A stretch of DNA of 39,331 nucleotides, from positions 1-39,331 of IMG/VR virus record IMGVR_UViG_3300028400_000002; one strand, given 5' to 3'. The notes beneath the pieces are model-generated. The model was not told the DNA's origin and did not search any database. It saw only the letters and a program-made list of their open reading frames with translations. Source of the DNA: a virus. Position numbers and translations under genes: made by a program. Shown one piece after another: positions 1 to 33,983 of this stretch (its first letter is position 1; every line of letters starts with the position of its first letter).

Positions 1-98
1 CACTGCGTAGAGTTTTTCCTCAATTTCATGCGCCATTTTCTATCTCCGATTCAAGAGTAGTTGTAGGCTTCCGCACAAGATCAAATTCAGGCATAGGC
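1..98. repeat. Terminal direct repeat (left copy) marking a circular assembly
   Basis: Bases 1-98 are identical to 39234-39331. The repeat falls inside coding sequence: it holds the end of one leftward gene (26-289) and the first 12 codons of the gene that starts at 39269 (equivalent to 36 on the left). Direct terminal repeats of T7-like phages usually lie between genes and are longer, so an overlap left by assembling a circular or circularly permuted molecule is the simpler reading. A genuine short terminal repeat is not excluded. Confidence 0.9.
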
Positions 99-289
99 AT
101 GTATAGACCATTGAATACTTTGTAGGTACCAATAGAAGAAGGGTTCACATCAAAGAAAAATCCATACTCCTTCCCATCAGACATTAAGATGGCGATAGCA
201 TTATCTTGGCCTTTGAGATCTGGGTATCGCCAAGGATTTCCCGCACGAGTTTGGTGGGTTCCAGGGGTTGGAAGTTGTTGATTAGTCAT
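26..289 (-). CDS. Hypothetical protein, 87 aa
   Basis: I do not recognise this protein. The longer reading frame reaches 394, but the ATG at 287-289 has a good GGAG site 7 bases upstream and the upstream part is occupied by another small gene in a different frame, so I start here (MTNQQLPTPG). The protein has a Pro/Gly-rich N-terminus and a region YGFFFDVNPSSIGTYKVF that looks beta-rich. No membrane segment is visible. In the closed circle it is read just after the 131-aa zinc-finger gene (38874-39269), and its start overlaps the stop of the 51-aa gene upstream. Confidence 0.7.
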   Translation of the reverse strand: MTNQQLPTPGTHQTRAGNPWRYPDLKGQDNAIAILMSDGKEYGFFFDVNPSSIGTYKVFNGLYMPMPEFDLVRKPTTTLESEIENGA

Positions 290-437
290 AATAATTCTCC
301 GTCTCTTTGAGTACCTTAGCGCTAAACCACTCATAGAGAGTGTTTGCCAATGATGATTGCTTGGAAGTGTACATAACCTCCTCTCCAGAAGCAAACCACC
401 AAATGGTGAAAAATGCGCCCCAAAGGTTGTCGCTCAT
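282..437 (-). CDS. Small hypothetical protein, 51 aa
   Basis: Found by reading the minus strand. ATG at 435-437 is preceded by AGGAG at a normal distance. The product begins MSDNLWGAFFTIWWFASGEE and ends ETENYYD. The N-terminal stretch with Trp and Phe residues is hydrophobic and could contact membrane, but it is short. The stop overlaps the start of the next gene (287-289), which suggests translational coupling. The leader contains the third, reduced copy of the structured RNA element (459-509). Function unknown. Confidence 0.6.
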   Translation of the reverse strand: MSDNLWGAFFTIWWFASGEEVMYTSKQSSLANTLYEWFSAKVLKETENYYD

Positions 438-458
438 TTTAACTACTCCTCTTAAAAA

Positions 459-509
459 GGTGGCGATCCGCTGACTAAGCTGCAGGCTGAGATATTACGG
501 GCTACCACC
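459..509 (-). ncRNA. Structured RNA element, reduced copy C
   Basis: On the minus strand this leader ends with CAGCGGATCGCCACC, matching the 3' end of element copies A and B, and is followed a few bases later by the Shine-Dalgarno of the 51-aa gene. GGTGG (459-463) can pair with CCACC (505-509). The long inner CTGGCTG/CAGCCAG stem of the other copies is absent, so this is a shortened or decayed copy. It lies just after the stop codon of the 58-aa gene. Confidence 0.45.
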
Positions 510-510
510 C

Positions 511-687
511 TTACCAATCCCCGAAGTTGTCCCAGATAAAGGAATCGTCATAGTCATAATCGTCGGCAGTGCTGTAGTTGCCCCGTCTTTTCTTCTGTCG
601 TTGCTGGCCTTCCTCCTCGTCGTAGCTACTATCAAGCCTATTTCTGATCCATTCGTTTTCAATTTCGGTAAAGTTAATGTCGGGCAT
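511..687 (-). CDS. Small acidic hypothetical protein, 58 aa
   Basis: ATG at 685-687 follows AGGAGATAGATAA, a strong ribosome site. The protein starts MPDINFTEIENEW, has a basic patch QRQKKRRGN and a very acidic aromatic tail (ADDYDYDDSFIWDNFGDW). No family recognised. It sits between structured RNA copies A (upstream leader) and C (downstream). Small acidic phage early proteins often bind host factors, but nothing here shows a target. Confidence 0.65.
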   Translation of the reverse strand: MPDINFTEIENEWIRNRLDSSYDEEEGQQRQKKRRGNYSTADDYDYDDSFIWDNFGDW

Positions 688-708
688 TTATCTATCTCCT
701 GTATAAAG

Positions 709-828
709 GGTGGCGATCCACTGGCTGACCGATTTCCCCACGCTACCCACTATGTACCTGAGACATAGTGGACGTATCGGTCTAGGTCGTCTAGCAAGAC
801 GTCAGGTCGCCGCAGCCAGCTTCACGCC
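709..828 (-). ncRNA. Structured RNA element, copy A, with predicted pseudoknot
   Basis: Read on the minus strand between the 65-aa and 58-aa genes. Outer stem GGCG/CGCC pairs 825-828 with 712-715; an asymmetric internal loop follows; inner stem CTGGCTG/CAGCCAG pairs 813-819 with 721-727. Inside are a 6-bp stem (728-733 with 776-781) and a perfect 9-bp hairpin (747-755 with 763-771) with a 7-base loop. Six loop bases (756-761) are complementary to 802-807, giving a pseudoknot. The element ends about 10 bases before the next Shine-Dalgarno, so it forms most of the leader of the 58-aa gene. I match it to no known riboswitch or ribozyme. Confidence 0.65.
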
Positions 829-838
829 ATAAGTTTAC

Positions 839-1036
839 TTATTTCATTAATGCCACATCAGCAAGAAAGCCAATGTCATCAGCAAAGTCAAATTCACCTA
901 CTTCCATAGCCACTCGACATATAAGTAAAAGCATATCGACAAAGCAATTTTGGAACGCAATATCACCATCATCAAATTGTGCCCAATTTCTAGCCACATA
1001 AAGATCAATCAACTTTTCTGTAGTAGATAAATCCAT
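839..1036 (-). CDS. Small hypothetical protein, 65 aa
   Basis: ATG at 1034-1036 with GGAG about 8 bases upstream. The sequence (MDLSTTEKLIDLYVARNW...) is predicted mostly alpha-helical and acidic, with a hydrophobic helix around CFVDMLLLICRVAMEV that may be a buried helix rather than a membrane segment. No family recognised. It is flanked by structured RNA copy B in its leader and copy A just after its stop. Confidence 0.65.
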   Translation of the reverse strand: MDLSTTEKLIDLYVARNWAQFDDGDIAFQNCFVDMLLLICRVAMEVGEFDFADDIGFLADVALMK

Positions 1037-1063
1037 ATCAGGACTCCATCTCGATGTAAAGGG

Positions 1064-1149
1064 ATGCGATCCACTGGCTGGCCCGTAGCCCTTAGCGACC
1101 TATCCATCTGCTACGGGAGCAGGTCGTCCAACGCAGCCAGCTTCACGCC
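1064..1149 (-). ncRNA. Structured RNA element, copy B, with predicted pseudoknot
   Basis: Minus-strand leader of the 65-aa gene. It shares with copy A the 5' block TGGCGTGAAGCTGGCTGCG and the 3' block CAGCCAGTGGATCGC. The inner CTGGCTG/CAGCCAG stem (1134-1140 with 1074-1080) is intact. The internal hairpin differs completely in sequence from copy A but is again perfect: 1110-1117 with 1082-1089, 8 bp, 20-base loop. Loop bases 1096-1101 (CGACCT on plus) pair with 1121-1126 (AGGTCG), a pseudoknot in the same topological place as in copy A. Preserved pairing with changed sequence argues for a real RNA structure. Confidence 0.65.
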
Positions 1150-1158
1150 ATAAAACAT

Positions 1159-1794
1159 TTAATGTACAGCTTCAGAAGATTGGTACACTTCATCAAGTAC
1201 CATATCAAGGGCTGCAATAATACTCGTTTTATGTCCCTCCTGGTCCATAGTTTGCAGAGAAGGCAACAAGGAAATAACTTGTGCTGCCAGATAGGTATCA
1301 GGCCAGCCACGCACACCTTCATCTACATTCTGTTGGACGGCAAGCATTGTTAACATCAGTTCTTTTTTATCTTCATCCAGAGTTTTATGAAATTCCTCAA
1401 TGTAATGAAAAACTTCAAGAGAATCATGTTTGACACTTTCAACAAATTCAGTGTCAATCTCAACGTTATGATCCTTTACATAAGAATCCAGTAGTTCCAG
1501 AAAACGACGTTGTTCTGCTACAATATTGTTGATATTATCAGGATTTACCTGACAACGAAGTACCCACGGTGAAGCCAGTCCGTAAAGTTCTTCGATAGAA
1601 GCTGCGGGCGGATTGCTACTCAGGATATTCTCCACTTCGTTGTTAAATCGAGAAGTGACCTTCTTGACTACTTCCGACAGATTTTCGGATTCGTTGATAA
1701 TTTCCTTGAAATTCACAAGGCAAGTTTTCAAATCTTCTCGTGCTTGGATTTTATTTTCAATTTCCCGAATGTCGATGTTTTCAACAGTCATCAT
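1159..1794 (-). CDS. Hypothetical acidic helical protein, 211 aa
   Basis: Start chosen at ATG 1792-1794, preceded by GAGAGGAAAAC; a second ATG follows directly. The product is acidic and predicted almost entirely alpha-helical, with coiled-coil-like stretches at about residues 8-60 and 125-160 and no membrane segment or cysteine motif. No family recognised. It lies downstream of the primase gene after a 216-base gap that contains an AT-only tract, and it precedes RNA copy B. Confidence 0.7.
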   Translation of the reverse strand: MMTVENIDIREIENKIQAREDLKTCLVNFKEIINESENLSEVVKKVTSRFNNEVENILSSNPPAASIEELYGLASPWVLRCQVNPDNINNIVAEQRRFLELLDSYVKDHNVEIDTEFVESVKHDSLEVFHYIEEFHKTLDEDKKELMLTMLAVQQNVDEGVRGWPDTYLAAQVISLLPSLQTMDQEGHKTSIIAALDMVLDEVYQSSEAVH

Positions 1795-2010
1795 GTTTTC
1801 CTCTCTTTGGTTTGGATTTAATGACAGTGCTCTTGATGCACAGTGAGTAAGATATGTCCCGACGCAAAAAGTTCAACCCGCCCCTGAGATTTTTGATACC
1901 ACATTTTGTGTGGGTACCGTGTAGGTTAAACTGTGTTTTTATTTACCCGTATTTCTCTGTATATGTATTATATTATATATATAATATAATATTAAATATA
2001 ATATATAATA
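1795..2010. other. Gene-free spacer with extreme AT-rich tract (about 1957-2056)
   Basis: The spacer between the primase gene and the 211-aa gene contains about 100 bases made almost only of A and T, with many nested palindromes of TATA and ATTAAT type. The tract also encodes the end of the primase (final YKYINNNN). Nearby is a small inverted repeat CCACA/TGTGG (about 1899-1913). Such a tract melts easily and is a reasonable candidate for a replication start region or a weak terminator; no iterated binding sites are visible to settle it. Confidence 0.4.
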
Positions 2011-2832
2011 TTAATTATTATTATTAATATATTTATATAATATATTATATATATCTAATCTGTTTAGTTCCTTTGGGTCAATTCCGGGGCAATCTAGGAC
2101 AATCTGTACGGGTATTCCCAACTCATCCCGTACTTTCCTTGCGGCCTTTCTCTGTTGCTTCCGCACTTCCGGGTTATCATTGTCGAACCACACCAAACAC
2201 ATTTCCGGCTTTTTGTCAAGCAAAAATTTTACTGTTTCTCCCTTGACACCGACAGTTAATTGTGCTAAGGCACACACTGGTAAATTTCTGTCAAGGGCAG
2301 TTTCAGCTACAACTATGCTTGATAAAATGTCTTCAGTCAAAATACAAAGACGCGGGTTATTTAATTCTCCGGCTTTGAATACAGTTTGTTTTTCTTTCAA
2401 GTTTGATAAATAACGCTTGGGATTGTTCATCCTGTAAATACATCCATCGATATCATTTACTGGTAGTTTTAACATGCCTTGCTTGGGCAAGTACTCAATT
2501 CCGTACTTGTTAATTTCCTGTTGATTGAGCATGCGGGTAAAGGCCACCATGTCTCCAGGCCACAAGGTCCGGTCACTGATACCCTGTACGGAACAATCAG
2601 GTAAGTTATTGATTTTCTTAGATTTTTCCCTCTGCTTGACAAGTGGGGAAAATTCTGCTAAGGGGATAAATGCCCTCTCATGACACCTGTGACAATACGC
2701 AAACCATCCTTTTTCTTCTCTGGTAATCTGCAACGACGGGCGGCTTTCTTTGTGACATTCATGCGGCCAATAAACAGAACGGCCCACTTCCATATGGGCC
2801 AGTTTTTGCCTGATTTCTTTTTTATTAATCAT
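2011..2832 (-). CDS. DNA primase, zinc-binding and TOPRIM domains (T7 gp4 N-half type)
   Basis: Makes RNA primers for replication and probably works with the separate helicase encoded at 37005-38219. An N-terminal zinc-ribbon-like region carries Cys26/His27 and Cys47, Cys50, His51 (CHRCH). A TOPRIM core follows: Glu167 in LCILTEDIL and the acidic pair Asp217/Asp219 in VWFDNDN. There is no helicase domain, so primase and helicase are separate here, unlike T7 gp4. The start overlaps the stop of the methyltransferase-like gene (2825-2832), indicating coupling. The C-terminal residues YKYINNNN are encoded by the AT-rich tract and may be a recent, non-conserved extension. Confidence 0.8.
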   Translation of the reverse strand: MINKKEIRQKLAHMEVGRSVYWPHECHKESRPSLQITREEKGWFAYCHRCHERAFIPLAEFSPLVKQREKSKKINNLPDCSVQGISDRTLWPGDMVAFTRMLNQQEINKYGIEYLPKQGMLKLPVNDIDGCIYRMNNPKRYLSNLKEKQTVFKAGELNNPRLCILTEDILSSIVVAETALDRNLPVCALAQLTVGVKGETVKFLLDKKPEMCLVWFDNDNPEVRKQQRKAARKVRDELGIPVQIVLDCPGIDPKELNRLDIYNILYKYINNNN

Positions 2833-3412
2833 CCAATGTTCCCCATTGTTCCGCCATAGCTAAAGCTATTCCCAAATATGTTTTTGAACGGTCACGTTTA
2901 CGTGTTGGACTTGGTCCCATTTTCCAAACACGTTGTTCCCTACCTTCAACTATATTTGTAGGCTTTAATTTTGGTACGTTATGCAGATATAATCCTGTCT
3001 TTTTTGTTTCACCGTGACCAAACTGCCACGGTTGAATATATTGTAATTCCCCGTCATGTAAATGTTGAAAAATTACAGACACAGGATTTTCCAGTACAAC
3101 ATGATCAGATTTTTGCAAAGCTAAATCCCATAATGATTTTGTCCATTCTATAGCTTTTAGTCTTTTGTTATGATAGGTCATTCCTTCTCCATACCACCTG
3201 TTACCGCTAACAGCCAGGGCAGTACAATCAGGATGCAAAATAATTAAATCCCATTTCCCGTTATTTTCCAATGTTTCTATAATATCACCTTGTATATGCC
3301 AGTCCGGATTTCCTCTTGTCGGCAACAAATCACAAGAATATGCCTCGTGCCCTTTTAACCTGAAGGCATTAGTGACTGTGCCGGATTCCTCACAGCCTAT
3401 TAAAATTTTCAT
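2825..3412 (-). CDS. SAM-dependent DNA methyltransferase-like protein
   Basis: 195 aa. The N-terminal MKILIGCEESG resembles the SAM-binding first strand and loop of cytosine C5 methyltransferases. HPDCTALAVSGNRWY occupies the place of the catalytic PC motif, and LENPVSVIF matches the ENV/ENP motif. The C-terminal part (FGHGETKKTGLYL, then a TRKRDRS basic segment and GIALAMAEQWG) matches a common phage family usually called putative DNA methylase. It may protect phage DNA from restriction; it is shorter than true C5 enzymes and lacks an obvious target-recognition domain, so specificity is uncertain. Ribosome site GGAGGATTAC lies in the end of the upstream gene. Confidence 0.65.
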   Translation of the reverse strand: MKILIGCEESGTVTNAFRLKGHEAYSCDLLPTRGNPDWHIQGDIIETLENNGKWDLIILHPDCTALAVSGNRWYGEGMTYHNKRLKAIEWTKSLWDLALQKSDHVVLENPVSVIFQHLHDGELQYIQPWQFGHGETKKTGLYLHNVPKLKPTNIVEGREQRVWKMGPSPTRKRDRSKTYLGIALAMAEQWGTLDD

Positions 3413-3595
3413 TTAGTAATCCTCCAATTCAATTCCTTCACTGTCCAACCAATCATTGAAACCTACGCGATAAGCTACTGGATCGGTTTCTTTCAGTGTT
3501 TGTGACGTTGGGTAGTAAATCCCTGCAATGTTTACGTCGCCGTAAACTTCATCCAGAAAATCATCATACAGTTTTTTAGCTTCATACTCGTACAT
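3413..3595 (-). CDS. Hypothetical protein, 60 aa
   Basis: I choose ATG 3593-3595 because GAGAGGTGA lies at a normal distance; an upstream GTG would add three residues (MII) and overlap that site. Product MYEYEAKKLYDDFLDEV... ends DSEGIELEDY and is acidic. The pattern DPVAYRVGFNDWLDSEGI resembles short phage proteins of unknown role. The stop is adjacent to the methyltransferase-like start, and the gene end carries that gene's ribosome site. Confidence 0.65.
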   Translation of the reverse strand: MYEYEAKKLYDDFLDEVYGDVNIAGIYYPTSQTLKETDPVAYRVGFNDWLDSEGIELEDY

Positions 3596-3624
3596 GATAA
3601 TCACCTCTCTTTTGTTTTATGGGT

Positions 3625-3816
3625 TTAATCAGCAGTATACCAACGTTTCAAGGTTACTTCTCTATCAGTAACCTGTACCAAGGTTGAATCATACGCTTGC
3701 GGCGGATAATCCGCAAAGTATTGCGCCTTGATTGTGTCCACGGTTTCGACCTTGGGGTTATATTGGAAAGTATCATAAATCCAAGGGCCTTCCTGTTTAC
3801 GTTTTAACCATTTCAT
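3625..3816 (-). CDS. Hypothetical protein, 63 aa
   Basis: ATG at 3814-3816 follows a strong CAGGAGGAAC site. The product begins with a basic segment (MKWLKRKQEG) followed by a Tyr-rich polar region; no motif or membrane span recognised. It is part of the tightly spaced leftward gene series. Confidence 0.65.
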   Translation of the reverse strand: MKWLKRKQEGPWIYDTFQYNPKVETVDTIKAQYFADYPPQAYDSTLVQVTDREVTLKRWYTAD

Positions 3817-3838
3817 GATTATGTTCCTCCTGTGTTGT

Positions 3839-4354
3839 TTAGGGTTTCAAGGTGTTGGGTATGTCGTTCTGTTCAATCTTCAAGATTTGAGTGATAACGA
3901 AATACTCCGGCCCCGCTTTCCACATATTATTGGCAGGTTCATCAGTAAATTCCCCATTGCGGACATTAAAGATATGTCCCGTTTCCGGGACAATACCCAA
4001 CATGGCCGCTAAAGGATGCGATTTAACAGCGACCAAATAATTTCCGTGTTTAGTATATTTTTCAATGTCTGAGAATGAGATAATTTTTTGTGGATTGTCC
4101 AAATCCAATTGGAAAACCTTCTTGTATTTGATATGTAATAGGTCCAATAGTTCATACTGTTGCATGTCTGACAATCCGTTTTTGGGAAAGTTTTTATCGA
4201 CGTGCATTGTAGCGTTTACGGCACGGATCCAGGCCGTTTCTACTAATTTTTGTGGAGCATTATCAGGTAATACAGCCGACAAGGTACTAACTACAGGGCA
4301 AGGCATATCAATATGATATTTTTCACTCAAAGCATAAAATACTTGCGGATTCAT
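3839..4354 (-). CDS. Hypothetical protein, 171 aa
   Basis: Start at ATG 4352-4354 with AAAGGAAC upstream. The C-terminal half (GNYLVAVKSHPLAAMLGIVPETGHIFNVRNGEFTDEP) has the look of a papain-like fold, with a His in GHIFNV and a Cys in the N-terminal MPCPVVSTLS. The pairing of these as catalytic residues is only a guess. No confident family assignment. Confidence 0.65.
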   Translation of the reverse strand: MNPQVFYALSEKYHIDMPCPVVSTLSAVLPDNAPQKLVETAWIRAVNATMHVDKNFPKNGLSDMQQYELLDLLHIKYKKVFQLDLDNPQKIISFSDIEKYTKHGNYLVAVKSHPLAAMLGIVPETGHIFNVRNGEFTDEPANNMWKAGPEYFVITQILKIEQNDIPNTLKP

Positions 4355-4424
4355 GGTGTTGTTCCTTTCATATTGTTTCGGTTAGTTTGATGTGGCGTCC
4401 CTGCCGAATGTTCCATTGATTTTA

Positions 4425-4604
4425 TTAATCAATGTCAAACAGTTCCTTGACTGCCCCATCTGCAAAGGCATGAGACAGCCATATGACAAGGAAAGATTGT
4501 ACTCCGTGATTTGAATAGTCCAAAATGAGATACCACAATACGCCGAGTAATAATACTGTCAGATGGCGTTTGTAGTGATTTAAACGGGTTTTTATCTTGT
4601 TCAT
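4425..4604 (-). CDS. Small membrane protein, 59 aa
   Basis: Start ATG 4602-4604. A longer overlapping frame exists (to 4626), but this frame gives a credible protein: basic N-terminus MNKIKTRLNHYKRH, then a hydrophobic span (LTVLLLGVLWYLIL) and a second moderately hydrophobic segment (VQSFLVIWLSHAFA), ending DGAVKELFDID. It is followed upstream in the operon by another two-span small protein (4634-4777). Role unknown; inner-membrane location likely. Confidence 0.55.
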   Translation of the reverse strand: MNKIKTRLNHYKRHLTVLLLGVLWYLILDYSNHGVQSFLVIWLSHAFADGAVKELFDID

Positions 4605-4633
4605 GGTACTGCCCTTTCTTTTTCATGTTTGGG

Positions 4634-4777
4634 TTACAAGGTCAGTTCCAAGGCAAAGGCCACAAGGGCACACAGCCCCGCCAAGGAACCGAACGGATCA
4701 TGGTGGGTAATGCCGTCTAAAACCCATAAGACAGCAGATGCACCGATGAATATTGACACAATATCAATTCCTAGCAT
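4634..4777 (-). CDS. Small membrane protein, 47 aa
   Basis: ATG 4775-4777 follows GGGAGGTATTGGAA. The product MLGIDIVSIFIGASAVLWVL... contains two hydrophobic spans separated by DGITHHDPFG, and ends with a second span GLCALVAFALELTL. The start overlaps the stop of the 70-aa gene upstream. A hairpin membrane protein; I cannot assign a function, and its position far from the holin argues against a lysis role. Confidence 0.55.
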   Translation of the reverse strand: MLGIDIVSIFIGASAVLWVLDGITHHDPFGSLAGLCALVAFALELTL

Positions 4778-4983
4778 TTCCAATACCTCCCAATGTAGTA
4801 AGCATCGGTTTGCTTGTGGTCATCGTGGAACATGCTGCTAACTGCCTGAAGTTGTAACGCCCGGACAAAGAGCCGATAGACGCCGTGACGGCGAGCGTAC
4901 ATAGCAGCAGCATAAGATCCCCAATTATTGATGTTCTCTGCTGCCCGGATTGCGTGACAGGCTTCAACACTGTACTCATACAT
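4771..4983 (-). CDS. First gene of the leftward block, 70 aa hypothetical
   Basis: ATG 4981-4983 with AGAGGG about 9 bases upstream. An overlapping 94-aa frame reaching 5048 lacks a ribosome site and I treat it as a shadow. The product MYEYSVEACHAIRAAENINNWG... is predicted helical, Ala/Tyr-rich, with basic residues RRHGVYRLFVRAL in the middle and Cys near both ends. It ends with TAG overlapping the next start. As the first gene read leftward from the control region, it is likely expressed early. Confidence 0.6.
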   Translation of the reverse strand: MYEYSVEACHAIRAAENINNWGSYAAAMYARRHGVYRLFVRALQLQAVSSMFHDDHKQTDAYYIGRYWKC

Positions 4984-5013
4984 GGCTGTAACCCTCTTAT
5001 GTTGGTTGCGGGT

Positions 5014-5041
5014 ACTATAGTTTTAGACCAATGTGATGTAA
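5014..5041 (-). promoter_or_regulatory. Weak candidate leftward promoter
   Basis: Minus-strand reading gives TATAGT (5014-5019) as a fair -10 element and TTACAT (5036-5041) 16 bases upstream as a poor -35. It lies just upstream of the first leftward gene. Position supports it more than sequence does. Confidence 0.3.
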
Positions 5042-5163
5042 GGTTCAAATGATATTTTTTAATACGTGGCCAGGCCTTGATAAATCGACGCTAATACCCC
5101 TTGGATAACCTTAGAAAAAATGTGCTACGATTACCCAATAGGGCAATTATTGAGTACAGGTGG

Positions 5164-5177
5164 TAGTGGTCACTAAC
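5164..5177. promoter_or_regulatory. Operator-like palindrome, copy 1
   Basis: TAGTGGTCACTAAC; arms TAGTG and CACTA around a 2-base centre. The same sequence recurs within the longer palindrome at 5255-5270. Two copies of one palindrome in a divergent promoter region suggest a regulator binding site. Confidence 0.4.
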
Positions 5178-5254
5178 CCCATAACCCGCATGAATACTGG
5201 CATTAGCATAATTTATGACAATCAGGGGGCATGATTTTGGCATACTTTACGCAC

Positions 5255-5270
5255 GTTAGTGGTCACTAAC
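5255..5270. promoter_or_regulatory. Operator-like palindrome, copy 2
   Basis: GTTAGTGGTCACTAAC, 7-bp arms GTTAG TG / CA CTAAC around GT. It repeats the core of 5164-5177, with centres about 90 bases apart. A dimeric DNA-binding protein, phage or host, is the natural ligand; the HTH protein at 25127-25483 is one candidate but there is no direct link. Confidence 0.4.
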
Positions 5271-5306
5271 TTATGCAAAGGCCATGCCAATCCATGTGCG
5301 CCCAAT

Positions 5307-5327
5307 TGCAAATGAGAATGATTTGCA
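5307..5327. promoter_or_regulatory. Fur-box-like palindrome
   Basis: TGCAAAT (5307-5313) and ATTTGCA (5321-5327) flank GAGAATG. Aligned with the classical 19-base Fur consensus, the segment beginning GAGAATGAT matches at 13 of 19 positions. It lies about 30 bases upstream of a possible 34-codon ORF. The resemblance could be chance. Confidence 0.3.
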
Positions 5328-5354
5328 TTAAGATTCCACCAGGAAGGGCTGACT

Positions 5355-5459
5355 ATGAAAAAAGGCATAGGGGGCGGGGGGCATGCGGCCAATGTGCGGC
5401 CTGAGATAGCGGTCCAGCGAGAATTTTGGGAATTTTCAAAACTGGTAAATTTCCCTTAA
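5355..5459 (+). CDS. Possible 34-codon ORF in the control region
   Basis: ATG 5355-5357 is preceded by AGGAAGGG at normal spacing, which is the only good ribosome site in this region on the plus strand. The product starts MKKGIGGGGHAANVRPEI and ends FSKLVNFP. No family recognised and the Gly run is low complexity. It could be a leader peptide or a small early protein, or it could be spurious. Confidence 0.3.
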   Translation: MKKGIGGGGHAANVRPEIAVQREFWEFSKLVNFP

Positions 5460-5770
5460 TCAGTGAATATTGTCACATAGGCTCTCAGAAGCTATATGAG
5501 AAGGTTTAAGAAGGGGTAATAGTAGGGTACTGGGTTTTGTACAAAGTCCTCTCAGACGGCTTCTCAGGAGGTCTGGTTGGGTATTTTGGAGGGAGTTTAG
5601 GGTTTAGGGTAAATCCAGGGATGGTTATTTATTATTTTATGGGTATTATTACTTTGGTAATATATTTTGTAAAAAATTTCATTTTTTGGTCAAAAATGGA
5701 CATTTCGTGTGACATATATAGTAGAGGGTAATAAAAAATTTTTATTTGCGCTAGTTGCGCCTATAGGTTT

Positions 5771-6027
5771 CGTGGAATGATTAGCTGGTACGTCCTCAAC
5801 CACGTTAAATAACAATCGGAAGCCAGTAACACTCAAATCCAGGCTCTGTCCGTGCCCACTGACAACCTGGCCCCGGGACATTAGGTCGTAGGGGGACGCT
5901 GAGTACCCTGTGTCGAGGATGATTAATCAGTTACCGGGCTGGAAAACTGGTAAATGTGATTAATCTAGACAGGACAATCATTGAAACAAGTCAAAATTAT
6001 CTTGACGGCTCAATGGCGGTCCCGGGG
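5771..6027 (+). ncRNA. Hairpin-rich candidate structured RNA upstream of terminase
   Basis: A 9-bp perfect inverted repeat CCCCGGGAC (5871-5879) / GTCCCGGGG (6019-6027) encloses a branched region. Inside are GACGC/GTGTC (5895-5899 with 5910-5914), GATTAATC/GATTAATC (5921-5928 with 5958-5965) with an inner TTACC/GGTAA (5931-5935 with 5949-5953), and GTCAA/TTGAC (5990-5994 with 6002-6006). Upstream lie CGTGG/CCACG (5771-5775 with 5800-5804) and CCAGG/CCTGG. No open frame explains this. It may be a leader RNA, a packaging recognition site near terS, or a replication element. Confidence 0.4.
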
Positions 6028-25066: not shown

Positions 25067-25126
25067 GGCGATTAACTGGCCTGACCTGAAATTTCCTCCA
25101 ATTAATCTATGGTCCCTCCCTGTTAC
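25067..25126. other. Convergent junction between the two transcription blocks
   Basis: Only 60 bases separate the holin stop from the stop of the leftward HTH gene. GATTAA (25070-25075) and TTAATC (25102-25107) form a weak imperfect inverted repeat. I see no GC-rich hairpin with T-run on either strand, so efficient intrinsic termination is not evident. Confidence 0.4.
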
Positions 25127-25483
25127 TCAATCTAATTCACCAAGTTCCTCTAGCTCCTCCAATGCAATGAGGATTTCCAGCGGGTCAGCAGAAAAATCAG
25201 GTAACTCCACTGGCCTGCCCGTAACTGGTGATGTTCTATAATTACCAGTATCAATAAGGGTAGGTAAATTAAGGGCCTGAGAATTCTGCGCCCGCTGGCT
25301 TTTTCTTTCCTGTCGTTTGTTTAGATATTTACCATAGATATACCGCCTAACTGTCCTGGCTGAACAGCCAAGTACTTCAGCTATTTCTTTAGGCTTCTTG
25401 CCCTGTTTCCAAAGCTCCTTTAGACGGGTTATTTCAACAGCCGTCAGATGTTTGAACTTCCGCCTCTGTTTCTGCTTTGCCAT
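25127..25483 (-). CDS. Helix-turn-helix DNA-binding protein, 118 aa
   Basis: Start at ATG 25481-25483 with GGGGAGGGG directly upstream. After a basic N-terminus (MAKQKQRRKFKHL) residues about 14-52 form an HTH: TAVEITRLKELWKQGKKPKEIAEVLGCSARTVRRYIYGKY, of the kind found in transposase-like and sigma-like regulators. The C-terminus is acidic (FSADPLEILIALEELEELGELD). It is last in the leftward block and overlaps the MazG-like gene by 50 bases. Likely a transcription regulator; the palindromes at 5164 and 5255 are possible targets. Confidence 0.7.
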   Translation of the reverse strand: MAKQKQRRKFKHLTAVEITRLKELWKQGKKPKEIAEVLGCSARTVRRYIYGKYLNKRQERKSQRAQNSQALNLPTLIDTGNYRTSPVTGRPVELPDFSADPLEILIALEELEELGELD

Positions 25484-25868
25484 TCCCCTCCCCACTATAA
25501 TTATCTTTGATAAACACTCCATTCACTGTTTTACCAGTACGATCCTTGATCTTATTATATGCTGCTTCTAAAGCCGCTACCAAATCAATTTCCAACATTT
25601 CTGAAAAAATAATCAATGTAACAAGAACGTCCCCAAGTTCCAATGCCAGATTTTGTAAAAAAGTCTCTGGTTCTGGCATAGAAAGATCATATTGTGCCTC
25701 ATTAAATTTCAAAAACTCCTGATACATTTCTGCCAGTTCTTCCATAGTTTTACCAAATTGAGCAGCAGGATTAGGAGAATCAAACAAATGTTTTTCATCC
25801 GCCCAATCAATAATATTGCTTGCTAATCTTTCAAACGTCTGTGTCTTCTTGAGTTTCACCACTTTCAT
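25434..25868 (-). CDS. MazG-like nucleotide pyrophosphohydrolase
   Basis: 144 aa. The helical core carries EELAEMYQEF and LALELGDVLVTLIIFSEML, the EExxE and ExxD metal-binding pairs of MazG/all-alpha NTP pyrophosphatases, followed by AYNKIKDRTGKTVNGVFIKD, a common end in phage versions. Such enzymes hydrolyse NTPs or dNTPs and can adjust nucleotide pools or alarmone levels during infection. It sits next to RNR and ThyX genes, in keeping with nucleotide metabolism. The C-terminal tail after FIKD is unusual and overlaps the HTH gene. Confidence 0.8.
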   Translation of the reverse strand: MKVVKLKKTQTFERLASNIIDWADEKHLFDSPNPAAQFGKTMEELAEMYQEFLKFNEAQYDLSMPEPETFLQNLALELGDVLVTLIIFSEMLEIDLVAALEAAYNKIKDRTGKTVNGVFIKDNYSGEGNGKAETEAEVQTSDGC

Positions 25869-26283
25869 TCTCCTCTGTATAACGCTTTAACCCCGTATAA
25901 TACGACCGGGTTTCTCCTCCCATTCCAAAATAAGGGCTTCTAGGGTTTCGTAATTCTTCATGGTACCTCCAATTAACTTCAAGTGAATCAGGATCAATAA
26001 GTACGGGTGGTTTAAGATGAAATTGCCACACTTCCACTTCCCATCTTGGGAGATACATATTCCGTATTGATTTCTCTACGTCCGAAAGCTGACTAAAGAA
26101 CCGGGGCCTCTTGCCCCAATTCTGAGTAGTAGTTAACCATAGTCCTGTAGTAGCAGAACGGATAGCGTACACACAAGTAGGTCTGATTGGCCTAAATCGT
26201 TCATACTTCATCCGTTTAATGTCCGGCAAATACTTCCGGTCTAAGGACCGTCTATATTTTTTAAGTTCTTTCGTTACTCTCAT
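25831..26283 (-). CDS. Hypothetical protein, 150 aa
   Basis: Basic N-terminus (MRVTKELKKYRRSLDRKYLPDIKRMKYERFRP), then TCVYAIRSATTGLWLTTTQNWGKRPRFFSQLSDVEKSIRNMYLPRWEVEVWQF, a beta-rich domain with a pattern found in phage proteins that begin YAIR...TGLW. The C-terminus is polar. No function recognised. It overlaps the MazG-like start by 38 bases and follows the HNH gene. Confidence 0.65.
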   Translation of the reverse strand: MRVTKELKKYRRSLDRKYLPDIKRMKYERFRPIRPTCVYAIRSATTGLWLTTTQNWGKRPRFFSQLSDVEKSIRNMYLPRWEVEVWQFHLKPPVLIDPDSLEVNWRYHEELRNPRSPYFGMGGETRSYYTGLKRYTEENESGETQEDTDV

Positions 26284-26286
26284 AAA

Positions 26287-26802
26287 TTAAAGCTCACAAT
26301 GGCCAGCAGGACACAAATTATTTTTCATGTATAAATACAACTTTTCTATTTCAGAAAATGTTAAGTTCTTTTTAAGTGCGTTTACTTTCTTAGAAATAAC
26401 TTGTACATTACCTTTAATATACCCTTTAGTTGGGTCTATTCTATCCAAAGACGGAGCGTGTTCTGTCTTAGGTTTTAACTCTACTCCTAATACAGGACAT
26501 TTATTAGGAATTATAATATCAGACACTTCTATGTTAAAATCTAGCCCCTTCCTTTTCGCCCTTCTTTTAGCAGCATGATACAGCTTAACTTCCAACGGAA
26601 TATTTTTATGTTGTTCTATCGAAATATCACGTCTACATTCTTTACATACGGTGTTTACTCCATATAAACAATCTTTATGTTTATGAAATTGATCAAATGG
26701 TTTAATTTTTTCACATTTAGTACAAGCCCGCGTCCCTGCGGGCCAATCTTTTCCGTGACCTTTCCATCTAGCTTTTATCATGGCTTCTGTAGCCTTACTC
26801 AC
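26287..26802 (-). CDS. HNH (endonuclease VII-type) homing-like endonuclease
   Basis: 171 aa from GTG 26802, which overlaps the reductase stop (GTGA); ATG 26781 is an alternative start. A four-Cys zinc site (CTKCEK... CKECRR) precedes KCPVLGVELKP and SLDRIDPTKGYIKGNVQVISKKVNALK, the beta-beta-alpha metal nuclease core of phage free-standing HNH enzymes. The gene is AT-richer than its neighbours. Its last codons (LCPAGHCEL) closely resemble the C-terminus of the reductase (see findings), suggesting insertion at the end of that gene. Confidence 0.85.
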   Translation of the reverse strand: MSKATEAMIKARWKGHGKDWPAGTRACTKCEKIKPFDQFHKHKDCLYGVNTVCKECRRDISIEQHKNIPLEVKLYHAAKRRAKRKGLDFNIEVSDIIIPNKCPVLGVELKPKTEHAPSLDRIDPTKGYIKGNVQVISKKVNALKKNLTFSEIEKLYLYMKNNLCPAGHCEL

Positions 26803-28667
26803 AACTCACACCCCCCAGCAGCCGTGCAGGCCAATTCTTTAGTATTCACTGTACTATCATCAGTTTCAATAAACTTTGACCAATCAATTTTGGGGAAGTT
26901 CCCAACAGCTTCCTCATATTCTTCCTCGGTAATCTCCTGATAAGGAGCCTGCGGGTACACACCACCATCATACGGCAAGAAAGAAAGACCACCAATACTA
27001 TCAAAATTTTCCCAAACCCATTGGCCTACTTCCATCCATTCATTTTCACGGACGTACACAGTAATGGAAGGATTATGTTCAGTCCAGTACTCCCTGTACT
27101 GTTTCCAAAGCTCAAGCTGATCAATAGCAGTCAAATCATCCCGAAATTTGGCGTTATCCGGGGACTTGATAGGAAAATAAAATACAGTCACATTTTCCTC
27201 AGCACCAATAGCAGGTTCATTGGGCACTCCCTGTTCCTTAAGAAACACAGTAAGAGGGTCTTTGTTATCAGCCCTGACACTACGAATATAATACTGACTA
27301 AACCTAGGATGAATACCACTGGCACTATTTACAAGCTGCGACACAGTACCACTGGGCTTGACAGTGGTAATCATCTTGGACTCCTCCAAACCCAAATGCT
27401 GAGAAATACGTTTATTTGTTTCCCGAGCATGCAACCGCAAACGACCAAGCATCTGCGCTGTTTCTTCGCATACAGTACCAGTTAACGGGTTGTCAAGAAT
27501 GCCTGTAAGAGACACACCAAGAAGCCTCTCTTCCTCGGAATTGGTCTTCCATTTTTTAGACAAATATCTGAAGTCAGTAAATCCGGCCTGAAGTGTGCCA
27601 AGAATAGTGGCGACTTCCACCTTTTGCATCAAAGTCTTTTGAGTGTCCCCTGGACGAATTACAACTTCAGTGAGATTGCAGAACTGTCCACTGCGAAGAA
27701 TAATTTCACCACAAGGATTTGTACCAAATTCCCGAACTTCACGACCATATTTCTCTGCCTGATTTTGCGCAGCTTGTCGGTTGAAGATTCCTCGTTCACC
27801 AGACTTGGATTCATATAGGGCCACCCATTCACGCATAAATGTGCCCATATCAGGTTTGCCGTCGTACACAGCACTATTATTGGCAAGGGCACGATGCGGA
27901 TTGTGCTCCCAAAACATCCCGTCCTTGGCATGTCTCATCTGGTCATCACCAAGATCAGACAAGGAAATAAGAGCACTCCGACGTACACCTCCAACCACTA
28001 CAATATCCGCCACTTTACACATCAGATCATGGCATTCCAGGCTGGTTAGCTTGCGTCCAGCGGCCTGTTTGAACAGGTTTACAGCAAACTGGAACAAATC
28101 ATCCAAGGGCTGCGGGCCACTTGCCCTGCCTCCGAATGTCTTGAGACGAGCACCTGCGGGCCTTACACGACTAAGATCCCACTTCGGAATCTGTCCATTA
28201 ACAAGCATTGAGATAAGTTCTCTAAAAGACTTGGCCCACCCAATCTTGCTGTCTGGCACGACAATAGTCGTCTCACTCTCATGAAATTCGTCTGCGACTA
28301 CTGGCAAATTACGCACCCATTGCTGTTCTACACTGAAACCAACTCCAGTGCCACACATCAGAATATACATGGCCTCATCAAAAGCCCGTAGATCATCTAC
28401 AGCACGAAAGGCACAGTTATAAATCGCTACATTATCTTTCTCAGCGGCTTTGCCAGCAGTCATCATGGCCCGCATACTAGGCATAACATCCATGTTGACA
28501 ATCACGGGCTTGGCTTCTTTCTCAAGCCACCCTTCCATAGTCGGGTAATGTTCCTTCATGAAATCAATGTATCGTTGTACAGTCTCTTCCCATTCTTCCC
28601 TGCGATTCTCAGCCCCAATCCAACGAGCATATCGACTCTTGTGAATATACCGCGAATAATCGTCCAT
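26799..28667 (-). CDS. nrdJ: Ribonucleotide reductase, class II (adenosylcobalamin-dependent), monomeric type
   Basis: 622 aa; reduces ribonucleotides to deoxyribonucleotides for phage DNA synthesis. Active-site features are visible: Cys85 in NVAIYNCAF, NPCGE at 317-321 with the thiyl-radical Cys319, and Cys330 in RSGQFCNLTE. KPSGTVSQLVNSASGIHPRFSQYYIRSV is the usual phosphate-binding region. No small (NrdB) subunit or activase gene accompanies it, which fits class II. The C-terminus ELACTAAGGCEL carries the redox Cys pair as CX5C. ThyX and MazG-like genes nearby complete a nucleotide-supply module. Confidence 0.9.
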   Translation of the reverse strand: MDDYSRYIHKSRYARWIGAENRREEWEETVQRYIDFMKEHYPTMEGWLEKEAKPVIVNMDVMPSMRAMMTAGKAAEKDNVAIYNCAFRAVDDLRAFDEAMYILMCGTGVGFSVEQQWVRNLPVVADEFHESETTIVVPDSKIGWAKSFRELISMLVNGQIPKWDLSRVRPAGARLKTFGGRASGPQPLDDLFQFAVNLFKQAAGRKLTSLECHDLMCKVADIVVVGGVRRSALISLSDLGDDQMRHAKDGMFWEHNPHRALANNSAVYDGKPDMGTFMREWVALYESKSGERGIFNRQAAQNQAEKYGREVREFGTNPCGEIILRSGQFCNLTEVVIRPGDTQKTLMQKVEVATILGTLQAGFTDFRYLSKKWKTNSEEERLLGVSLTGILDNPLTGTVCEETAQMLGRLRLHARETNKRISQHLGLEESKMITTVKPSGTVSQLVNSASGIHPRFSQYYIRSVRADNKDPLTVFLKEQGVPNEPAIGAEENVTVFYFPIKSPDNAKFRDDLTAIDQLELWKQYREYWTEHNPSITVYVRENEWMEVGQWVWENFDSIGGLSFLPYDGGVYPQAPYQEITEEEYEEAVGNFPKIDWSKFIETDDSTVNTKELACTAAGGCEL

Positions 28668-28689
28668 CTATTATACCTCCCCTATTTTA

Positions 28690-28911
28690 TTATTCTTTAA
28701 TCCAACCAAGTTTAATCGCCACTTGTCGTACCTTATCAGCGTCCCTGATAGCGTATTCCCAAGCCGGGACTGACACACCACCAGACCAATAGACTTCCTT
28801 ATTTGGGTTAATCCCGTCCACTTCGCACAAAGCTACTGCAATCTGTCGATTCAAGTCTTGTACAGGACTTTCACTGTTTACTTCTTTAACGATCTTGTCC
28901 ACTTTGCTCAT
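28690..28911 (-). CDS. Small hypothetical protein, 73 aa
   Basis: Start ATG 28909-28911 is supported by GGAG about 12 bases upstream; the frame extends to 28941 but that part lies in the upstream membrane protein gene. Contains SPVQDLNRQIAVALCEVDGINPNKEVYWSGGVSVPAWEYAIRDADKV. The DGINP-x-E-WxGG pattern suggests a small globular phage protein, but I cannot name the family. Confidence 0.6.
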   Translation of the reverse strand: MSKVDKIVKEVNSESPVQDLNRQIAVALCEVDGINPNKEVYWSGGVSVPAWEYAIRDADKVRQVAIKLGWIKE

Positions 28912-29278
28912 CTTTTTGCAACTCCTTCTCAAAGAAATCATTAAGATATTTAACTACATTTTTTGGTAATTTAGATAATTCTTTATCTTGTTTAATATAT
29001 TCTATACCATCTTCAACTACTTTTGAAGCTACATATAAATTCATTACTTTTTCAGATGGAATAATAACAGAAAGTAATAAAGAACAACTACTAACAATAA
29101 AACCTCTTTTTACCCATTTTAGTAAATTATTTTTCATTTCTTCTGTATATTCTTCTGAATATATAAACCCTAAAAATATACTAGCTGCTGTTCCAGTAAT
29201 AATAAAAATTATTGTAGCAATAACAGAAATATCTCTAAATATTCCAGCTAACCACAGCAAAAGAATATAATCAGTCAT
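28886..29278 (-). CDS. Membrane protein, 130 aa
   Basis: Two transmembrane spans: about residues 18-37 (ISVIATIIFIITGTAASIFLGF) and 58-76 (RGFIVSSCSLLLSVIIPSE), followed by a charged helical cytoplasmic domain (VVEDGIEYIKQDKELSKLPKNVVKYLNDFFEKEL). The gene is markedly AT-rich compared with its neighbours, suggesting separate acquisition. Proteins with this two-span layout and a YIKQDKEL-like tail occur in many phages without known role. The ATG at 29276-29278 has no strong ribosome site. Confidence 0.6.
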   Translation of the reverse strand: MTDYILLLWLAGIFRDISVIATIIFIITGTAASIFLGFIYSEEYTEEMKNNLLKWVKRGFIVSSCSLLLSVIIPSEKVMNLYVASKVVEDGIEYIKQDKELSKLPKNVVKYLNDFFEKELQKDEQSGQDR

Positions 29279-29280
29279 TT

Positions 29281-29451
29281 TTATTTACCTCCACGATAAC
29301 CTTGAGCATACGCAGCCCTGCCTTGCCGCTCTGCTTTTTTCTTTGCCCGAGCTCTGGCCGCGCTGTCACCACATTCATAATAATATTTCTTACCGTGCTT
29401 GCCCCATTGAGCAAAGCACCCTTGACTGTCTTTACCAGTATGAACAGGCAT
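29281..29451 (-). CDS. Small basic phage protein, 56 aa
   Basis: ATG 29449-29451 follows GGAGGAATAAAGT. The product MPVHTGKDSQGCFAQWGKHGKKYYYE... ends with Arg/Ala/Lys-rich helix and AYAQGYRGGK. This layout (GKDS-GCF-WG-GKKYYY then a charged helix) recurs in many tailed phages as a short conserved protein of unknown function. Confidence 0.65.
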   Translation of the reverse strand: MPVHTGKDSQGCFAQWGKHGKKYYYECGDSAARARAKKKAERQGRAAYAQGYRGGK

Positions 29452-29455
29452 TACT

Positions 29456-29731
29456 TTATTCCTCCAGTTTTTCTGTATCCTGATAAATGGCTTTCATAAG
29501 AATGTCCTTGGTTACGTCCATAAGGACATAAAAATCAGAAAGTCCTTTTACGTCGTCTGTCTGAGGGGCAAGGAGAGCAATGCCACCGGATTCCCGATCC
29601 ACCCCGACAAAGAAATGGATCTTTTCAAGATCAAATGAATCAAGAGACTTGATCAGAAAATCCTTGCGCTCAAGTTTGCTCTCGATTTTATCAAGTTTTT
29701 CACGAGTCATCGTGTCAACAATATCAGTCAT
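29456..29731 (-). CDS. Hypothetical protein, 91 aa
   Basis: Start ATG 29729-29731 preceded by GAGGAG; the longer frame lies inside thyX. A helical N-terminus (MTDIVDTMTREKLDKIESKLERKDFLIKSL) is followed by a beta region IHFFVGVDRESGGIALLAPQTDDVKGLSDFYVLMD. The gene overlaps the end of thyX by 8 bases. Function unknown. Confidence 0.65.
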   Translation of the reverse strand: MTDIVDTMTREKLDKIESKLERKDFLIKSLDSFDLEKIHFFVGVDRESGGIALLAPQTDDVKGLSDFYVLMDVTKDILMKAIYQDTEKLEE

Positions 29732-30611
29732 AGTTCTTGTACTCCTCTTGTTCAACTTCCTGCCTGAATTGAATCCATGGCATCCTGAAATTGCCAGAAT
29801 ACCAATCACCCCACTTGGTTACATGAGTTACACCTTGAGTGGCCAAGGTTCCACCCCAAATCTTTCGGGCCTGATGTTCAAATGGGGACATATGCCTGTT
29901 TTTCAACAGTCTCTTGCTAAGTTTGGAATCTTTTTCATAAGAAAGTTCCCCCGGATTACCATAAGATACACGAGCACACCGGGCCGCTGAAATCATACAC
30001 AAATCCTTGTACTGTGGCGTTTTGGTGTAGTCTTCAGTAGTAATATAAGGTAAATGCCATGTCTCATTTATACCAATAATTACATCAGCAGTATCAATCA
30101 TAACTTCGTCCATTAAAAAAGCAAGTTCTTGAATTTCAGGTTGAGCATTTTCAGAAAGGCGAAGATCAAAAAAGTTATTCCAATCCGTAGCAGTAATTAA
30201 TACACGAATATGTTGATAGGGCCACAATACTCGATTGGTCCACTGCTTATGCAAACCGTATTTTTCAAGGTCTCTATGGGCAACACGACTATATATTACT
30301 CCAGTATTCCAACTATGTTTAACTAATCGAACATCTTCTTTGGAAAGAAACTCTGTTCCAACCATCCCTTTTTGTTCTTTCAAATATGAAACAGGAAAAT
30401 AAGGGAAAAATTCTACTTCTTCTCGAAGTTTACTCATAGACATGGCCCGATTGCTTTGTGCATTACGACTAAACATCCGGTGCGTCATAACTTCAGGATG
30501 AATAATCATCGGATAATAACATTCAAAAGTAACCAAAGAATCATGCCGTTGAATAATCCGAACGGCTGATTGATCACCAACATACCAAGGAGTAGGCTCA
30601 CTGCAAATCAT
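29724..30611 (-). CDS. thyX: Flavin-dependent thymidylate synthase
   Basis: Makes dTMP from dUMP using FAD and methylene-tetrahydrofolate. The signature is present as HRMFSRNAQSNR (a variant of RHRxxSxNxxSxR), and HMSPFEHQ matches the second conserved region. The internal GMVGTEFL region and long middle insertion are usual for phage forms. I start at ATG 30609-30611 because GAGGA lies 9 bases upstream; ATG 30624-30626 would add five residues. It overlaps both neighbours and belongs to the nucleotide module with nrdJ and the MazG-like gene. Confidence 0.85.
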   Translation of the reverse strand: MICSEPTPWYVGDQSAVRIIQRHDSLVTFECYYPMIIHPEVMTHRMFSRNAQSNRAMSMSKLREEVEFFPYFPVSYLKEQKGMVGTEFLSKEDVRLVKHSWNTGVIYSRVAHRDLEKYGLHKQWTNRVLWPYQHIRVLITATDWNNFFDLRLSENAQPEIQELAFLMDEVMIDTADVIIGINETWHLPYITTEDYTKTPQYKDLCMISAARCARVSYGNPGELSYEKDSKLSKRLLKNRHMSPFEHQARKIWGGTLATQGVTHVTKWGDWYSGNFRMPWIQFRQEVEQEEYKNYD

Positions 30612-30876
30612 AACTATTTTCCTCATCAATAATAAGAGTCACAGGGACTACTTCAAAAGCAGTCTTTTCTGTGTCGTCCCAAAGTTCAGATATTACCACA
30701 TGCCCCTTTTTCAAATACTCCCAAAACAGATTTACTTCATTGGCAGTAAATAGCGCTGGTAATTCCTCGGAATATTCAAAGGGAATCAGGTCATATTCCA
30801 AACCTTTACCAGTAATATCACTAAGATACCAACCAGTAAGTTTATCCTTAATAATAAATCTTTTCAGTTTTTTCAT
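30598..30876 (-). CDS. Hypothetical protein, 92 aa
   Basis: Start ATG 30874-30876 overlaps the phosphoesterase stop (ATGA), indicating coupling; an upstream ATG (30882) would add two residues. Begins MKKLKRFIIKDKLTGWYLSDITGKG, a pattern seen in small phage proteins with a KxTGWYLS motif, and continues with an acidic beta/alpha region. Function unknown. Confidence 0.65.
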   Translation of the reverse strand: MKKLKRFIIKDKLTGWYLSDITGKGLEYDLIPFEYSEELPALFTANEVNLFWEYLKKGHVVISELWDDTEKTAFEVVPVTLIIDEENSYDLQ

Positions 30877-31655: not shown

Positions 31656-31992
31656 AATCTTTCAAAGCCTCTATTTCAGTCAATGCAAACCATTTAAAAC
31701 CTTCCTTGTTACACCATTCCGCCATTGTCATTTTTGCTCCCTTACGAACTTTCTTGCCAGGATTGGACAAGAGAAATACAAGCTCCTTTTCCTCTGGCAA
31801 CCATTGCTTTACTGCCTTATACTTCTTTGTGTCCCCAGGCCTGAAGAATCCTTTGACTTCTACCAGAATATCCCCATGTACAAAATCAGGAGTATACCAA
31901 CTCTCAATCTGGTAGAAGTATTGTTCAGGTTCATATTCCCACTCTTCCCCAAGAAGATACGCAACCCTGTTTTCCAGTTCTGATTTATACAC
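31642..31992 (-). CDS. Endonuclease I-like Holliday junction resolvase (T7 gp3 type)
   Basis: 116 aa. The PD-(D/E)XK core reads YTPDFVHGDILVEVKGFF, with Asp, Glu and Lys in T7 endonuclease I spacing, preceded by the SELENRVAYLLGEEWEYEP helix-strand and followed by KKYKAVKQWLPEEKELVFLLS. T7 gp3 shows the same order. It should cut branched replication intermediates and help degrade host DNA. It is next to the amidase gene, as gp3 and gp3.5 are in T7. Overlaps neighbours at both ends. Confidence 0.85.
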   Translation of the reverse strand: MYKSELENRVAYLLGEEWEYEPEQYFYQIESWYTPDFVHGDILVEVKGFFRPGDTKKYKAVKQWLPEEKELVFLLSNPGKKVRKGAKMTMAEWCNKEGFKWFALTEIEALKDYANK

Positions 31993-33831: not shown

Positions 33832-33983
33832 TATGGAGCCCTCCAGAATTTACGCTCAGGTTCAAACCAACGCTTAGGAAGAAACATCTTATTGATCTTC
33901 TTAACAAATCGTCTGTTGTAGGGCCTGCCAAAAGACCGCTTGGCGTTAAAAAATGACCATTTTGCAATATCATAAAACTTCAT
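33831..33983 (-). CDS. Small highly basic protein, 50 aa
   Basis: ATG 33981-33983 follows ACAGGTGATT. Product MKFYDIAKWSFFNAKRSFGRPYNRRFVKKINKMFLPKRWFEPERKFWRAP is strongly basic and aromatic, so nucleic acid or membrane surface binding is plausible. Its stop (TAATGG) touches the next start. Function unknown. Confidence 0.6.
   Translation of the reverse strand: MKFYDIAKWSFFNAKRSFGRPYNRRFVKKINKMFLPKRWFEPERKFWRAP

What the first reader, a model, noticed from the sequence alone, without database searches (positions are those of the whole stretch)
459..1149. A repeated, covarying pseudoknotted RNA element in the leaders of three consecutive small genes
On the minus strand, three spacers end with the same block, GGATCGCCACC (or GGATCGCATCC), just before a Shine-Dalgarno site. 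Copies A (709-828) and B (1064-1149) also share TGGCGTGAAGCTGGCTGCG at the 5' side. Their inner stem CTGGCTG/CAGCCAG is identical. The enclosed hairpins differ entirely in sequence yet are perfect in both (9 bp and 8 bp), and in both the hairpin loop pairs with the same upstream single strand: ACCTGA/TCAGGT in A, CGACCT/AGGTCG in B. Keeping pairing and topology while changing sequence is what selection on RNA structure produces. The copies lie in different leaders of one operon, so they may regulate translation, process the transcript, protect mRNA ends, or bind a phage or host factor. I match it to no known riboswitch, ribozyme or phage RNA class. Copy C (459-509) is reduced.
Basis: partly seen in the sequence, partly recalled or inferred. 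Interest (0 to 1): 0.82.

Follow-up and report, generated by a model that had tools for sequence, protein, structure and literature searches.

The report
Phage RNA with fixed end, variable core
Several otherwise unrelated bacteriophages carry, just upstream of short genes or beside tRNA genes, a previously uncatalogued RNA whose two ends always zip into the same helix while its middle changes completely, probably a tRNA-like processing and protection tag for phage messages.

Summary
The conserved part is the outer frame, not the pseudoknot: WWAU|GGCG-UGAA-GCUGGCUG ... CAGCCAGY-GGAU-CGCC-RCC, i.e. a 4-5 bp stem, a tandem G.A internal loop and an 8 bp stem. I found the same frame in 10 further copies, on seven uncultivated phage contigs and one phage-like contig of a Chromatiales MAG. 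The contigs range from 33 to 60% G+C and share few genes. All 12 complete copies are sense to the flanking genes; six have a start codon 21-28 nt downstream; three lie within 200 nt of tRNA genes. Frame pairs show three double changes plus wobble changes. No Rfam family matches; cultured phages and E. coli genomes gave no true match. Conserved unpaired flanks (A-2, U-1 | G+1 ... R73-C-C) are what bacterial RNase P reads in pre-tRNA, so I favour a tRNA-like, RNase P-type 5'-end-forming leader (about 0.4). Regulatory leader, antiterminator and DNA-level site remain live rivals. There are no expression data.

The parts
813..828 (-). copy A, 5' strand of the frame: GGCG (P1), UGAA (tandem G.A loop), GCUGGCUG (P2); preceded by AU at 830-829
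709..727 (-). copy A, 3' strand of the frame: CAGCCAGU (P2), GGAU (loop), CGCC (P1), unpaired ACC
728..812 (-). copy A interior (85 nt) with a 9-bp hairpin and pseudoknot ACCTGA (807-802) / TCAGGT (761-756)
   Evidence: not shared by homologues other than B
685..687 (-). start codon of the 58-aa ORF (511-687) behind copy A, 24 nt after CGCC, with Shine-Dalgarno AGGAG
1134..1149 (-). copy B, 5' strand of the frame, identical to copy A
1062..1080 (-). copy B, 3' strand of the frame CAGCCAGUGGAUCGCA-UCC; the outermost P1 pair is lost
1081..1133 (-). copy B interior (53 nt) with an 8-bp hairpin CCCGTAGC/GCTACGGG and pseudoknot CGACCT (1126-1121) / AGGTCG (1101-1096)
1034..1036 (-). start codon of the 65-aa ORF (839-1036) behind copy B, 28 nt after the frame
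459..477 (-). copy C: 3' strand only (UAGUCAGC-GGAU-CGCC-ACC), no 5' partner; upstream of a 51-aa ORF starting at 437

Best explanation
The element belongs to a phage-borne RNA family: a constant terminal helix (frame) that closes on a freely changing interior, placed between genes as part of the transcript. Most likely it works as a tRNA-like 5'-end-forming leader. Host RNase P, or a nuclease that reads the same signals, cuts the polycistronic RNA at AU|GGCG. The downstream message then starts at the base of a long stable helix, with R-C-C as its unpaired 3' overhang and the start codon a fixed 21-28 nt further on. This separates the gene from its upstream neighbour and shields its new 5' end. 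Where a promoter lies directly upstream (copies D and G) nearly the same 5' end is made by initiation. Shown: the frame, its conservation and changes, orientation, spacing, tRNA proximity, the two promoter matches. Inferred: that it is cut, by what, and that this insulates or protects the mRNA. The interior is taken to be a phage-specific add-on.
For: Frame in 12 complete copies on 9 contigs, with M, J, K found by one strand and L by the other, each then showing the unqueried strand. Compensatory and wobble changes in the frame. Unpaired bases flanking the helix are conserved: A at -2 in 11 of 12, U at -1 in 10 of 12, R-C-C after the 3' strand in 10 of 12, also where no Shine-Dalgarno follows. 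A pseudoknotted non-tRNA RNA is cut by bacterial RNase P RNA only when given a 3' RCC tail, and base -1 affects the site (PMC12710915). All copies sense; start codon 21-28 nt downstream in six; upstream stop codon 7-12 nt before the frame in six. Three copies within 200 nt of tRNA genes on the same strand. Promoters of 11 of 12 consensus bases end 12 and 5 nt before the frame in D and G.
Against: No cleavage or expression data. The helix is longer than the 12-bp acceptor-T stack and carries G.A pairs. The fourth base of RCCA is A in five copies only (H, J, K, L, M). Sequence of the 8-bp stem is kept more strictly than RNase P would require. Copies with their own promoter (D, G) would not need a cut. 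Copies B and I deviate in RCC.
Confidence: 0.4

Rival explanations
1. A regulatory leader: a phage or host protein (or a small molecule) binds the tandem G.A frame and controls translation or decay of the next gene, with the interior as a tuning or second binding domain.
For: Fixed 21-28 nt distance to the start codon in six copies; strict sequence conservation of the frame, including the G.A loop, across dissimilar phages.
Against: Following genes are unrelated (Lar-like protein, dNMP kinase, short unknowns, PHROG 1376), and copies G, K and L have no start codon close behind. No conserved aptamer-like interior.
Confidence: 0.25
2. A DNA-level element: ends of a mobile or recombination site (attC-like single-strand hairpin with variable tip) that shuffles small genes or interiors.
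For: Near-identical frames in phages of 33-60% G+C with few shared genes; tandem small genes separated by copies in the window and in contig G003; interiors exchanged wholesale.
Against: All 12 copies are sense and sit in leaders or tRNA spacers; five pairs vary by G-U wobble, which fits RNA; no GTT/AAC core; J and K convert loop mismatches to pairs in helical register.
Confidence: 0.12
3. A processive antitermination RNA (put/EAR-like) that modifies RNA polymerase at the start of transcription units.
For: Copies D and G start at or within a few nt of a promoter-matched transcription start.
Against: Most copies lie inside operons without a promoter match, are repeated gene by gene, and no terminators needing read-through were evident near the window copies.
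Confidence: 0.1
4. A self-cleaving ribozyme that cuts at AU|GGCG by itself.
For: Conserved non-Watson-Crick loop and a conserved flank at a presumed cut site; neighbourhood of tRNA genes recalls phage HDV-like ribozymes (from memory).
Against: No ribozyme model matches copies A, B, D-H or L even at permissive thresholds; few conserved unpaired bases; interior not conserved.
Confidence: 0.06

Closest known systems
Non-tRNA substrates of bacterial RNase P (4.5S RNA precursor, phage RNAs, RCC-tailed hairpin and pseudoknot substrates; PMC12710915)
   Same: Helix beginning with G+1-C, preceded by U-1 and followed by unpaired R-C-C; sometimes next to tRNA genes; phage RNAs are among known substrates.
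   Different: Frame contains a tandem G.A loop and two stems in fixed sequence; interior is replaced from copy to copy; cleavage not shown.
Integron attC sites
   Same: Imperfect hairpin with two paired boxes, an unpaired spacer and a variable tip; arrays with small genes (comparison from general knowledge).
   Different: No GTT/AAC core; RNA-type wobble changes; fixed spacing to start codons; no integron context seen.
Phage antitermination RNAs (HK022 put) and EAR
   Same: Structured RNA at the 5' end of phage or operon transcripts (copies D, G); from general knowledge.
   Different: Repeated before single genes inside operons; no known put/EAR sequence compared; no terminators seen to be overcome.
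Mobile regulatory cassettes of T4-type phages (PeSL)
   Same: Promoter or stem-loop cassettes between small phage genes (from general knowledge).
   Different: Only D and G have promoters; the stem here encloses a long variable interior.

Membership tests
RNase P substrate (tRNA-like) | G+1 at the cut site with U at -1 and a C opposite G+1 | tested here: met
   U-1 in 10 of 12, G+1 in 12 of 12, partner C or U in 11 of 12
RNase P substrate (tRNA-like) | Unpaired R-C-C(A) directly 3' of the helix | tested here: met
   RCC in 10 of 12; exceptions B (UCC) and I (AUA); RCCA in 5
RNase P substrate (tRNA-like) | T-arm stacked on a 7-bp acceptor (12 bp in all) | tested here: not met
   Stem is 4-5 bp + G.A loop + 8 bp; only F and G have a 5-bp/7-nt T-like hairpin UUGAAGU
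RNase P substrate (tRNA-like) | Cleavage by RNase P | not testable with these tools
   no biochemistry or RNA-seq at hand
Any Rfam 15 family (riboswitches, ribozymes, YrlA, GOLLD, T-box and others) | Covariance-model score at or above the gathering threshold | tested here: not met
   no match on the element in the window or in homologous loci
Riboswitch | Conserved aptamer core in front of genes of one pathway | tested here: not met
   no conserved interior; downstream genes unrelated
Integron attC | R-box core GTTRRRY / RYYYAAC | tested here: not met
   ends read AUGGCG ... CGCCRCC in the copies
Phage put/EAR antiterminator | Read-through of terminators downstream in cis | not testable with these tools
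   no terminators needing read-through seen near the window copies
   present in A and B only; other interiors lack the same topology

The most novel reading that the evidence does not exclude
Phages use a universal RNA socket: a sequence-constant, tRNA-acceptor-like frame read by host RNase P, into which unrelated interior RNA modules are exchanged, so that operons are punctuated by structured RNAs much as mitochondrial transcripts are punctuated by tRNAs.
Probability: 0.2. Interest if true: 0.85.

Novelty: new variant of a known kind. Interest (0 to 1): 0.62.

Why it matters
A structured RNA whose outer helix is kept almost letter for letter across dissimilar phages while its interior is replaced wholesale is unusual: most RNA families keep a core and vary the periphery. 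If the frame is a host-read processing site, phages would have a portable way to set message ends gene by gene, and the frame would be a simple handle for excising and stabilising RNAs. It also gives a search model that retrieves members from phages without shared gene order, so the question is directly testable.

Tried and rejected
Chance: three exact blocks at the three leaders only, and homologues found by one strand showed the other strand unasked. Known RNA families: none. Host housekeeping RNA: the model is absent from about 790 genome searches (overlapping samples) in the order, class and phylum of the one MAG that has it. Cultured phages, plasmids and E. coli genomes: only chance-level matches; the doubtful ones were opened and lacked the second strand. 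Riboswitch: no shared interior or pathway. Common interior fold: folding z-scores average -0.45; the commonest interior 6-mer, GUAGCG in 6 of 12, is matched by 1 of 300 shuffles but partly reflects related pairs F/G and D/H. Further weak model hits in the same contigs (9-21 bits) have broken frames and look like chance. Relatives of the upstream 211-aa protein: none found. Resemblances of GUGAAG...UGGAUC to the 3' end of 16S rRNA, and of the 5' strand to Y RNA, were considered from memory and dropped. That the conserved CC only pairs with the Shine-Dalgarno GG was considered; it is also kept in D, G, J, K and L, where no close Shine-Dalgarno follows.

Full report
What was given. The window is a whole 39,331-base uncultivated virus record. 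Its large terminase is closest, at about 39% identity, to those of Pseudomonas syringae phages. The region of interest lies on the minus strand among short genes without Pfam or PHROG matches.

Checking the observation. Copies A and B share 22 identical bases at the 5' side and CAGCCAGTGGATCGC at the 3' side. GGATCGCNNCC without mismatch occurs exactly at the three leaders. Inside, A has a perfect 9-bp and B a perfect 8-bp hairpin, each with a loop that has a 6-nt complement upstream; in dinucleotide shuffles this combination appears in 1 of 2000 (A) and 0 of 2000 (B). Read closely, the pseudoknot strands are not independent in sequence: both copies carry CGACCTG on the 5' side and AGGT on the 3' side. 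Copy C keeps only the 3' strand.

Homologues. Exact-pattern scans of 2.9 million virus contigs and of 84,980 genomes gave mostly chance matches. Filtering for both strands of the frame left ten further complete copies. D and G lie on one 83.7-kb contig, E on a 33-kb contig, H and I on a 52.9-kb contig, F on a 40.6-kb contig, J on 43.5 kb, K on 14 kb, M on 5 kb, and L on a 6-kb contig of a Chromatiales MAG that carries a phage-type DNA methyltransferase. D to I come from IMG/VR records 3300028399 and 3300028400. M, J and K were picked by their 3' strand and proved to have the 5' strand; L was picked by its 5' strand and proved to have the 3' strand, so the pairing of the halves is an independent finding. 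The contigs range from 33 to 60% G+C and share only scattered genes, mostly at 20-68% identity, except those of J and K, which share some genes at 80-90%.

The frame. Eleven copies were aligned (the 414-nt hybrid copy H was left out). Pair counts: three pairs have a change on both sides (A-U for G-C in I, C-G for U-A in P2 of J, C-G for U-A at the fifth P1 pair of F), a number reached by 2 of 500 shuffles; five pairs vary by G-U wobble; sliding the partner strand destroys pairing. In J and K the loop reads AGAC/GGAU, which turns the U.U and A.G neighbours of the G.A pairs into A-U and C-G. Unpaired bases next to the helix are conserved as well: A at -2, U at -1, and R-C-C after the 3' strand. 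A covariance model (R1) finds its training copies at E 1e-15 to 1e-24 and no convincing new one in the same contigs. A separate two-strand matrix scan of 6.3 Mb of held loci again returned only the known copies above its reversed-sequence control in the part of the ranking printed.

The interior. It measures 31 to 137 nt, or about 380 in hybrid copy H, and cannot be aligned across the family. F and G share one type (UGUAGCG ... GUCGG-UUGAAGU-CCGRC). D, E and H share a 5' hairpin (GCGUG-GAAAAUCGCAGA-CACGC in D and E, GUGUG-GAAAGCAGA-CACAC in H, a covarying stem), and D and H a 3' hairpin. Nested folding is on average no stronger than in shuffles (mean z -0.45). The A/B pseudoknot topology is not seen in the others.

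Context. All 12 copies are sense to neighbouring genes. Six (A, B, E, F, H, M) have a start codon with a Shine-Dalgarno site 21-28 nt after CGCC, as does C at 24 nt. Six (A, B, F, I, K, M) begin 7-12 nt after an upstream stop codon. D and G have 11-of-12 sigma-70 promoter matches ending 12 and 5 nt before GGCG; the other copies have none beyond shuffles. G lies in a tRNA cluster, about 6 nt before a tRNA that is split by a group I intron; J lies about 110 nt after tRNA-Thr and L about 195 nt before tRNA-Met. The genes that follow are unrelated.

Mechanism. Sense orientation, wobble changes and leader position place the function in RNA. A helix that starts with G+1-C, is preceded by A-U and followed by unpaired R-C-C, and that in three contigs sits among tRNA genes, has the signals that bacterial RNase P reads. 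Work on RNase P shows that a pseudoknotted, non-tRNA RNA becomes a substrate once it carries a 3' RCC tail, and that the base at -1 affects the site (PMC12710915). I therefore favour processing at AU|GGCG, giving the downstream message a structured 5' end, with about 0.4 confidence. Cleavage itself is inferred. The strict sequence of the 8-bp stem is more than RNase P would need and leaves room for a protein-binding leader (0.25), a DNA-level site (0.12), an antiterminator (0.1) or a ribozyme (0.06).

Novelty. No Rfam 15 family matches the window or eight homologous loci at gathering scores, nor do copies A, B, D-I and L match on the element at permissive thresholds. No open-access paper held prints the frame, and BLAST of cultured phages, plasmids and E. 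coli genomes found only chance matches. It is a new RNA family by those tests. I file it as a new variant of a known kind because structured and processed phage leaders are known; the constant-end, exchangeable-core design is the unusual part.

Noticed in passing
L463 1162-1408 (minus), contig IMGVR_UViG_3300028400_000004: A phage tRNA with CAT anticodon loop is interrupted by a group I intron and lies directly behind copy G of the element, in a cluster with Arg, Lys, Thr and Leu tRNAs.
   Followed up: partly
window 5164-5177 and 5257-5270: Two exact copies of TAGTGGTCACTAAC, 93 bp apart, with palindromic TAGTG/CACTA arms, in the spacer between divergent gene blocks: operator-like.
   Followed up: no
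window 1960-2060: About 100 bp of nearly pure A/T with nested palindromes between the 211-aa ORF and a DNA primase-like ORF; a promoter or replication-origin candidate.
   Followed up: no
window 1-6000 and 25100-39269: Leftward replication genes occupy both ends of the contig, as if the genome were circular or circularly permuted and cut inside this block.
   Followed up: no
L457, G003:C1:26450-26863: A 414-nt hybrid element: one intact 5' strand, an internal CAGCC without GGAUCGCC, a second GCUGGCUGG and an intact 3' strand, as if two copies had fused.
   Followed up: partly
L799 4453-4560 (minus): Directly behind copy K lies a second long inverted pair GTTTTGCCCAC ... GTGGGCAACC enclosing about 90 nt, another possible structured RNA.
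   Followed up: no
interiors of copies A, D, F, G, H, J: GUAGCG recurs in 6 of 12 otherwise dissimilar interiors (1 of 300 shuffle sets as high).
   Followed up: partly
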